Positions 59,760 through 61,659 of a DNA stretch of 64,000 bases are shown in pieces (the first letter of the stretch is position 1; every line of letters starts with the position of its first letter). The stretch is from Byssothecium circinans. Its lineage: Eukaryota > Ascomycota > Dothideomycetes > Pleosporales > Massarinaceae. The notes under the pieces are model-generated. The model made no database searches and had not been told where the DNA came from. It was given only the letters and a program-made list of their open reading frames with translations. The DNA lies in NCBI GenBank assembly GCA_010015675.1, contig ML977017.1, positions 207,468-271,467 of the forward strand. The letters are read 5' to 3'. The position numbers and the translations under genes are program-made.

Positions 59760-60710
59760 GCCTTGACGGTGGTGTGATTGTGTGTGCGTGTGTTATGGGT
59801 AGGAGGATAAGTGTGGCAAGTGGTGTGCGGCTGGCTATTCATGGCTTTCGTGTTTTTACACCATAGATGATGAACGATATGAAGTTCAAACGAAGCAATT
59901 TAAACCAAACCATTCTATATTCATCCCAACAAGAAAAACAAGGAAAAAGAAGTTTTTCCAATTTCTAAACTCTGCCACCTCTACGACTCGATCCCCCCGC
60001 CCCTGTCCCCCCACTTCCCCAAAAGGAAAATCCAGCAAAAAAAGAAATAATCCTTTTAACAAACCAGACCAAGCCGGTTGTTCCCCCTAGCATCTGCGTG
60101 TGGGTCTCAGGTTCCAATTTCCAGCTCTCGCCGACCTGACCTCGCCCTAGGGATAAGTGAGAATTTGTACTTTTAAAAGGATTATATAGGGGTGCAAAAT
60201 AGTGGTGGGTGTATTGCGTGGGCGGAGTGAGAGGGGAAGCGGGGCGTGAGTGATTGCGATTATGAGGGCTTGGGAGGTGTGTGGGTATGTGGAGTTTGGG
60301 GTTCTGTGTGCGTGTGTGCGGGTGAGACAGAGGAGAGGAGGAGGATGTAGATGGGTTTTCAGGGAGATGATGGCGATGATTATGTAGTAAGGCAGTTCAC
60401 AGTTCTTTTGTGTGAGAGAGAGAGCAGCCATGGAAGAATTACACATGCATTGCAGAACGCGACTAGGTAAGAGTGTAGGAACCGTGAGGGGGAAATGGGA
60501 GTGCCAGAGGATATCCACCATCATCAAACAACGTACAGACAAAACACCTCCGACCACGAACCTCCAACCACGTCGTCTACTTTTATGAAGTATCACAGGA
60601 ATAAAATGAAAGTTACAATTCCGACAACGACAACGTCTATATACTCGTTAGTCGTGATCTACCACCGGTCTCGTATGGTGAGTGATACTTACACATGGAT
60701 TGATCGACCT
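59760..60710. other. Convergent 3' intergenic region SDR/repeat-peptide gene
   Basis: No gene seen. Low-complexity G/T- and A/C-rich stretches; the frame at 60147-60596 is a shadow without motifs. Confidence 0.45.
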
Positions 60711-61526
60711 TTACTGCTTTCCCCACACAATTTCCGTAGATGGCGGCCCCAACTCGATAGTGTCCGGAGGTGCTTCGTTACGCTTTCCCCAGGTGACCTC
60801 AGTCGAAGGCGGGCCCAACTTAATAGTATCCGGTGGTGCCTCGCCACGCTTTCCCCAAATGATCTCGGTCGAAGGCTTACCTATTTCAATAATGTCGGGA
60901 GGAGACTGTTGGTCCCTCTTCCCCCAGCCGACGGACGTAGACGGCGGACCAAGTTCGATGGTATTCGGAGGAGTCTGGTCTCGCTTTCCCCAGCCAATGT
61001 GCGTCGATGGAGGGTCGAGCTCGATGGTGTTGGGTGGCGTCTGGTCACGCTTCTCTTTTCCCCAGCCTACGTGCGTGGATGGCGGACTTAGCTCAATCTT
61101 ATCCGACGGGGACTGATCCCTCTTCTCTTTACTCCAGATGACCGTCGTGGATGGCTTGCCGAGCCAGAACTCTGGCGGCGTCGGGTGCTCCTCATTTACT
61201 GTAGGTGTAGGATCACGCTTCTCCTTACCCCAGATAATCTCCGACGATGGAGGTGTGATAGTGATCACGTCGTCGTTGGACGATTGCGATTTCGCTTCAT
61301 CACGCTTGTTCCATGTCACATCAGTCGTTGGCTTGCCTAGCCATAACTCGTCGGCGGGCGTTCCACGTTTCTCCTTGCCCCAAATGATGGTCGAAGTGGG
61401 CTTGCCGAGCCAGATGGTGTTGGTGGGGTAGCCGTTGACTTCACGCTTCTCTTTGTTCCAGATGACTTCGGTGACCGGGGGTGTGATCTCAATTGTGTCG
61501 GGCGGGCTGGGTGCGGCGTCGTAGGT
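60711..61526 (-). repeat. Eleven coding tandem repeats (about 63-96 bp each)
   Basis: The DNA of exon 2 is a degenerate tandem array, in frame, that encodes the eleven peptide units. Units 7 and 8 (residues 185-228) are the most alike and units 10 and 11 are also very close, which points to recent local duplication; the N-terminal units are more diverged and longer. Confidence 0.85.
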
Positions 61527-61659
61527 CTGAAGATAGTTATCAGTGCATGTCTCTTATGGCTGTGAGTGATGGACGAGGTCCACATACCCCAATAGGCAGA
61601 CCGTTCACGTTAGCGAACAGAGCGCCAGCGGCAATTGCCGACACGGTTCTGTACAGCAT
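60711..61659 (-). CDS. Secreted Kex2-processed repeat peptide precursor (possible RiPP/signal peptide precursor)
   Basis: The model is complement(join(60711..61526,61588..61659)), 295 aa. Exon 1 is exactly the signal peptide: MLYRTVSAIAAGALFANVNG then LPIG; the phase-0 intron is 61 nt (GTATGT..TTCAG). Exon 2 is eleven imperfect repeats of 21-32 residues (25-52, 53-78, 79-99, 100-128, 129-160, 161-184, 185-206, 207-228, 229-251, 252-273, 274-295). Each ends in W[GNS]K, followed by EKR or R, except the last, which ends WGKQ and stop. Two core types occur: TIELGPPST (units 1, 4, 6-8, 10, 11; unit 9 mixed) and WLGKPST (units 2, 3, 5). There is no Cys. Kex2 in the Golgi cuts after Lys-Arg, so about ten small peptides would be released. 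The architecture matches fungal KEP and dikaritin RiPP precursors; the product is unknown. Confidence 0.85.

What the first reader, a model, noticed from the sequence alone, without database searches (positions are those of the whole stretch)
60711..61659. Two-exon gene for a secreted precursor with eleven Kex2-type repeats
Seen: a signal peptide encoded by its own exon, then eleven repeats, ten ending in Lys-Arg and each with a Trp three or five residues before the end. Known: fungal dikaritin RiPPs (ustiloxin, phomopsin, asperipin, epichloëcyclins) and Kex2-processed repeat peptides (for example Ustilago repellents, alpha-pheromone precursors) use this design. The core here, TIELGPPST..W, contains no Tyr-x-Ile-Gly or Cys pattern I know, so it may be a new peptide family.
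Basis: partly seen in the sequence, partly recalled or inferred. Interest (0 to 1): 0.88.

Follow-up and report, generated by a model that had tools for sequence, protein, structure and literature searches.

The report
Fungal precursor of tryptophan-ended secreted peptides
A fungus carries a gene, apparently missing from its public annotation, for a secreted protein that looks built to be cut into eleven short peptides with a conserved tryptophan; related genes occur in several other fungi, the general design is known, and what these peptides do is not.

Summary
On the minus strand, 61659-61588 (signal-peptide exon), a 61-nt GT-AG intron and 61526-60711 encode a 295-aa protein of eleven units, ten ending in Lys-Arg. 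Residue shuffles never reach this (0 of 100,000). The genome is inferred to be Byssothecium circinans, Pleosporales. Of 24 related proteins, ten are named, from Bipolaris, Alternaria, Stemphylium, Boeremia and Ascochyta.

The conserved element is a 13-residue core, x-I-x-L-x-x-P-x-x-x-[IV]-x-W, followed by KR; 21 of 24 relatives stop 0-3 residues after their last Trp. A second gene in this genome, with relatives in nine other named genera, carries a similar core in longer proteins, most with a cysteine-containing tail.

The gene meets the tested sequence criteria of a Kex2-processed repeat protein (KEP), a published class. It is not in a dikaritin cluster: no UstYa or tyrosinase match on its 422-kb contig. 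It has neither known Dothideomycete alpha-pheromone motif. Most likely it yields linear secreted peptides of 19-30 residues. Function is undetermined; a signalling or environment-facing role is my guess. I found no description of this family in the texts I could search.

The parts
61588..61659 (-). Exon 1: signal-like peptide MLYRTVSAIAAGALFANVNG plus LPIG (24 aa)
   Evidence: Translation and hydropathy; 20 of 24 relatives begin with a similar stretch, e.g. MQYRLVSMLAAGVLVAMSSAAPVPS (judged by eye). Cleavage after NVNG is my guess by the -3/-1 rule; SignalP was not run.
61527..61587 (-). Intron, 61 nt, phase 0, GTATGT...CAG
   Evidence: an intron at the corresponding place is inferred in relatives from insert/no-insert protein pairs
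60711..61526 (-). Exon 2: eleven peptide units, ten ending in (KE)KR, stop after WGKQ
   Evidence: all eleven units carry the 13-residue core in register
60723..60761 (-). Example of the 13-residue core (last unit, TIELGPPSTEIVW, residues 280-292)
   Evidence: PSSM built from relatives scores it 33.7 bits; no hit outside the gene among 77,083 six-frame residues of the window scanned in open segments of 40 aa or more, gene included; coordinates

Best explanation
The gene encodes a Kex2-processed repeat protein (KEP). Shown by sequence: a signal-like N-terminus, eleven units with a core of fixed length ending in Trp, and a KR beginning two or four residues behind that Trp in ten of them. Inferred: the precursor enters the secretory pathway, kexin cuts behind KR, a Kex1-type carboxypeptidase trims the basic residues, and linear peptides of 19-30 residues ending in WG, WN, WGKE, WNKE, WSKE or WGKQ are secreted. 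The core x-I-x-L-x-x-P-x-x-x-[IV]-x-W has its hydrophobic residues at positions 2, 4, 11 and 13 around a Pro at 7, which would fit a small amphipathic beta-hairpin with cross-strand pairs 2-13 and 4-11. Function is my guess: an extracellular signal, or an agent acting on other organisms, rather than a modified toxin of the ustiloxin kind.
For: Repeat architecture far beyond shuffles. The last six cores differ much more at synonymous than nonsynonymous sites (pS 0.74, pN 0.23; all eleven 0.71 and 0.34), so old copies were held alike in protein. 24 related proteins, 10 of them named, from 5 genera. Positions 2 and 4, which my core filter did not impose, are I/V/F in 89 of 93 and L/I in 85 of 93 relative cores, or 59 and 55 of the 63 distinct ones. 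In 21 of 24 relatives the protein ends 0-3 residues after its last Trp (10 end WS, 7 WGKE): the final unit then needs no cleavage site, and WGKE is what trimming of WGKEKR would leave. One kexin P-domain match in the genome. No UstYa or tyrosinase match on the contig. AlphaFold2 of the last three units draws strands at core positions 1-4 and 9-12 of the middle unit; in the exon-2 model 4 of 11 cores hold a pair of strands of three or more residues.
Against: No peptide, transcript or processing was observed. The AlphaFold2 models have low confidence (mean pLDDT 56.1 and 40.1), 7 of 11 cores of the exon-2 model lack such a strand pair, and one strand pair (25-30/33-38) lies across the border of a core, so the hairpin rests mainly on the residue pattern. 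In relatives only 84 of 124 Trp have a dibasic site within five residues. Three of 24 relatives do not end near the last Trp. Some rows are near-identical (P0006-P0008), so the counts are not independent. Cleavage before the frequent Asp at P1' is assumed. Nothing here tells function.
Confidence: 0.8

Rival explanations
1. Surface or structural precursor of repellent type: the released amphipathic peptides self-assemble on hyphae, as described for Ustilago Rep1. (It shares the cutting step with the best explanation and differs in function, so the confidences overlap.)
For: Alternating hydrophobic residues and Trp would give amphipathic strands; Rep1 is a Kex2-cut repeat precursor whose peptides form surface-active amyloid-like fibrils (PMC4617103, passages). 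The second gene of this genome has long acidic proline-rich linkers and a cysteine-containing tail, more like a wall or surface protein.
Against: Rep1 peptides are 35-53 residues; these would be 19-30 and are rich in Pro and acidic residues, so probably soluble. No assembly prediction and no sequence comparison with Rep1 was run.
Confidence: 0.25
2. Lineage-specific alpha-type mating pheromone acting on Ste2.
For: Same precursor design; one Ste2-family locus in the genome (two exon matches); neither known Dothideomycete pheromone motif was found by exact patterns, and a looser pattern gave three single matches on three contigs against 10 for its reversed control.
Against: The core has neither PYG[LM]P[IV]G nor the two-Cys motif that PMC6339444 reports for Dothideomycetes; that paper reports the PYG type in Alternaria brassicicola, and this family also occurs in Alternaria. 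Ste13-type XA/XP dipeptides follow KR at 1 of 10 sites here and 7 of 62 in relatives. Eleven non-identical copies seem unlike a single-ligand pheromone (inference).
Confidence: 0.08
3. Precursor of an oxidised or cyclised peptide (dikaritin-like RiPP) whose UstYa-type enzyme is encoded elsewhere, perhaps joining through Trp.
For: 56 UstYa matches in this genome; PMC7329392 names one W- and P-containing KEP type (P-3) with DUF3328 neighbours; Tyr does occur in 48 of 143 cores of the long second type.
Against: No UstYa match on C41, at least 153 kb to either side, nor on C10 with the second gene; the published average distance is 3.09 genes; no Tyr in the window gene's cores and in only 1 of 93 relative cores.
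Confidence: 0.07
4. A secreted repeat protein that acts uncut; the KR sites are spacers.
For: No processing data; the long second type keeps large linkers.
Against: KR at a fixed distance behind the Trp in 10 of 11 units, and protein ends placed just behind the last Trp in 21 of 24 relatives.
Confidence: 0.08

Closest known systems
Kex2-processed repeat proteins (KEPs) as defined by Le Marquer 2019 (PMC6339444) and surveyed by Umemura 2020 (PMC7329392)
   Same: Signal-like peptide, at least three similar units separated by KR, units taking up far more than 15% of the protein, no DUF3328 gene nearby, as for 78% of Umemura's KEPs.
   Different: The core x-I-x-L-x-x-P-x-x-x-[IV]-x-W is not among the motifs named in the sections that I read, and 'WGK' is in neither main text. 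Umemura's type G-9 occurs in similar genera without DUF3328 neighbours; its logo is in a figure that I could not see, so identity with it is open.
Dikaritin RiPP precursors (ustiloxin, phomopsin, asperipin)
   Same: Signal peptide plus KR-bounded repeats.
   Different: No UstYa or tyrosinase match on the contig; no Tyr in the cores.
Alpha-type pheromone precursors of Dothideomycetes (PMC6339444)
   Same: Signal peptide and KR-bounded repeats.
   Different: Neither PYGxPxG nor two-Cys motif; Ste13 dipeptides at 1 of 10 sites.
Ustilago Rep1 repellent (PMC4617103, passages)
   Same: Amphipathic repeats cut by Kex2.
   Different: Repeats of 34-55 residues; no sequence comparison made.
Second gene of the same genome, P0025 (around C10:560264-560812; CC80DRAFT_19438)
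   Same: Same core register and WGKR ends.
   Different: 509 aa, long acidic linkers, 16 Cys in the last 200 residues, no Pfam match.

Membership tests
KEP (Kex2-processed repeat protein) | Signal peptide, no membrane anchor | tested here: inconclusive
   Hydropathy and likeness to relatives; SignalP and TMHMM not available
KEP (Kex2-processed repeat protein) | At least three similar fragments after cutting at KR/RR | tested here: met
   Eleven fragments, all with the core; criterion
KEP (Kex2-processed repeat protein) | Repeats occupy at least 15% of the protein | tested here: met
   Exon-2 part 271 of 295 residues; the cores alone 11 x 13 = 143
KEP (Kex2-processed repeat protein) | Actual cleavage by kexin | not testable with these tools
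   One kexin P-domain match in the genome; no proteomics
Dikaritin RiPP | UstYa (DUF3328) gene near the precursor | tested here: not met
   0 of 56 genome matches on C41; the search goes exon by exon and can miss weak exons
Dikaritin RiPP | Tyr-containing core | tested here: not met
   No Tyr in the eleven cores
Dikaritin RiPP | Tyrosinase gene near the precursor (ustiloxin, phomopsin) | tested here: not met
   0 of 30 genome matches on C41
Ascomycete alpha-pheromone | PYG[LM]P[IV]G or two-Cys core (Dothideomycetes) | tested here: not met
   Units; motifs
Ascomycete alpha-pheromone | Ste13 dipeptides (XA/XP) after KR | tested here: not met
   1 of 10 sites
Repellent (Rep1-like) | Surface-active amyloid-like fibrils | not tested
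   Needs peptide biophysics

The most novel reading that the evidence does not exclude
Pleosporales carry an undescribed peptide system: two precursor architectures (a compact one and a long one with a cysteine-containing tail) deliver peptides built on one 13-residue Trp-ended core that folds as a tiny beta-hairpin, used as an extracellular signal or surface agent; the diversity of units within one gene gives a mixture rather than one ligand.
Probability: 0.25. Interest if true: 0.65.

Novelty: new member of a known kind. Interest (0 to 1): 0.42.

Why it matters
KEPs are numerous, and their functions are described as largely unknown (PMC9769878 abstract). A family with a defined 13-residue core, two precursor designs and members in well-studied genera such as Alternaria, Bipolaris, Ascochyta and Stemphylium can be tested directly by peptidomics and gene removal. 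In this genome the gene appears unannotated: no near-identical protein came back for the window gene (one search scored a capped list of candidates), although the second gene of the same genome did. Surveys based on protein catalogues would then miss it.

Tried and rejected
Dikaritin cluster: rejected on the location of UstYa and tyrosinase matches. C-terminal amidation (WGKR to Trp-amide): thought unlikely because 10 of 24 relatives end in WS, which offers no Gly; the search for the amidating monooxygenase domain found nothing, but no control genome rang either, so that is no evidence. Alpha-pheromone: tested by patterns. Rfam and tRNA scans of the window: no match. The bacterial promoter/terminator scan says nothing for a fungus. 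Of 11 matches to the core pattern in the genome, 4 lie in this gene, 5 in the C10 gene and 2 elsewhere (L020, L025; not translated, taken as chance; reversed control 0). A weak C8 protein match (L012, E 0.02, three stops) was translated and taken as chance. The structure models were too weak for a fold search; none was run. L026 was fetched and not used.

Counting choices. The core filter imposes Pro at 7, I/V/F/L/M at 11 and Trp at 13, so it drops cores such as GNASTVVTW; 93 cores were kept, against 124 Trp with 12 or more residues before them, in 24 relatives. The PSSM comes from relatives found with the window gene, so its scores on that gene are not independent; on the 20 long-type proteins it gave 0-5 hits each, 2 of 20 at zero, against a mean of 0.002 in shuffles. 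One search scored only the 7984, only the 7988 candidates sharing most words. Pfam was run on 29 of the window's 32 stop-to-stop ORFs of 200 aa or more plus one of 132 aa, and on 9 of the 40 ORFs of 120 aa or more in the 19 kb L013-L014.

Full report
What is there. The window is stretch 207468-271467 of contig C41 (422,564 bases) in a 48.4-Mb, 109-contig genome. The species is inferred: a search with a second gene found here returned a 99% identical NCBI protein of Byssothecium circinans on a contig of 1,301,023 bases, the length of C10; taxonomy places it in Massarinaceae, Pleosporales. The gene lies on the minus strand: exon 1 61659-61588, intron 61587-61527, exon 2 61526-60711, 295 aa. Units 1, 2, 4, 5 and 6 end in KEKR, units 3 and 7-10 in KR, the last in WGKQ.

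More than chance. Shuffling the exon-2 protein 100,000 times gave at most 2 WxK(EK)R motifs (10 observed) and at most 6 KR (10 observed). Between the eleven 13-codon cores pS is 0.71 and pN 0.34; for the last six 0.74 and 0.23. Synonymous sites are near saturation, so the units are old copies kept alike in protein sequence.

Relatives. The spliced protein found 5 proteins at E<=0.01. A profile of it and these five found 23, of which 19 were new: 24 in all. Ten rows carry names: Bipolaris maydis, zeicola, sorokiniana and oryzae, Alternaria sp. and A. dauci, Stemphylium lycopersici, Boeremia exigua, Ascochyta clinopodiicola and A. rabiei; 14 are unnamed. That these genera belong to Pleosporales is recalled, not looked up. 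By eye, 20 of 24 begin with a signal-like stretch like the window's; P0001, P0014 and P0024 do not, and P0004 has it behind an extension. P0006 against P0007, and P0003 against P0010 and P0005, carry a V...Q insert of 16 and 21 residues at the place of the window's intron, as a retained intron would.

The core. All eleven units carry x-I-x-L-x-x-P-x-x-x-[IV]-x-W without gaps, with L or F for I in two units and I for L in three. Of 93 relative cores selected on Pro7, hydrophobic 11 and Trp13, positions 2 and 4, not selected on, are I/V/F in 89 and L/I in 85; of the 63 distinct ones, 59 and 55. In 21 of 24 relatives the protein ends 0-3 residues after the last Trp: ten WS, seven WGKE, one each WGKQ, WGK, WG and W; the exceptions are P0003, P0009 and P0023. 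The geometry 2-13 and 4-11 around Pro7 suggests a beta-hairpin. AlphaFold2 places strands accordingly in the middle of the last three units and in 4 of 11 cores of the exon-2 model, with a further strand pair across a core's border; confidence is low (mean pLDDT 56.1 and 40.1).

A second architecture. The genome holds a second gene on C10 with units such as DTIIINPPTATITWGKR. Its annotated form, P0025, has 509 aa, long acidic proline-rich linkers and 16 Cys, all within the last 200 residues. A search gave 20 proteins, 10 named, each from a different genus: Byssothecium, Periconia, Kalmusia, Paraphaeosphaeria, Karstenula, Melanomma, Bimuria, Paraconiothyrium, Didymosphaeria, Lophiotrema; 19 of 20 have at least four Cys in the last 200 residues, P0042 has none there. 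Their 143 filtered cores are I/V/F at position 2 in 127, and 48 contain Tyr. The PSSM of the short family hits 18 of 20. Common origin of the two types is likely but not proven, as short repeats can converge.

Surroundings. To the left lie an SDR-type reductase and an inositol polyphosphate kinase, further off LRR and UNC45-like genes; to the right PPR, RRM and permease matches; other ORFs had no Pfam match, and not all were scanned (see Tried and rejected). No UstYa (56 matches in the genome) and no tyrosinase (30) is on C41 or C10. One kexin P-domain match and one Ste2 locus exist.

Literature. I saw abstracts and outlines of PMC7329392 and PMC6339444, the Results of PMC6339444 in full with its sections 17 and 24, and sections 6-8 of PMC7329392. 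Neither main text holds 'WGK' at the start of a word. No paper of the held library has both WGKR and KEX2; ITWGK, VTWGK, SWGKR, TWGKR or IIWGK listed eight papers, none by title on fungal precursors. PMC9769878 was seen by passages: kep knockouts in Coprinopsis cinerea gave no detectable phenotype, and some basidiomycete KEPs have a C-terminal Trp. PMC4617103 was seen by passages for Rep1. Searches were otherwise seen as listings only.

Verdict. A real, conserved KEP-type gene whose family I could not find described; known class, unknown function.

Noticed in passing
L010; around C10:560264-560812: Second gene with the same Trp-ended cores in a long precursor with acidic linkers and a cysteine-containing tail; annotated as hypothetical protein CC80DRAFT_19438.
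   Followed up: partly
window 60711-61659: The window gene returned no near-identical public protein, although the second gene of the same genome did: probably unannotated.
   Followed up: partly
window 61302-61442 and 61119-61214 (units 2, 3 and 5): Units 2, 3 and 5 carry an extra Trp at core position 3 (xxWLGKP); 0 of 93 short-type and 0 of 143 long-type relative cores have Trp there.
   Followed up: partly
P0025-P0044 (long type): Cys numbers in the last 200 residues are mostly 8 or 16, suggesting a repeated disulfide module; the one member scanned (P0025) has no Pfam match.
   Followed up: no
G000 C103/C104 and C89/C94: Pairs of small contigs give identical match scores (tyrosinase; UstYa), suggesting duplicated or unmerged assembly ends.
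   Followed up: no
window 60471-61091, plus strand: A 206-aa open frame antisense to the gene; not examined.
   Followed up: no
G000: 56 UstYa-domain matches (exon pieces counted separately) may mean a rich repertoire of dikaritin-type clusters elsewhere in this genome.
   Followed up: no
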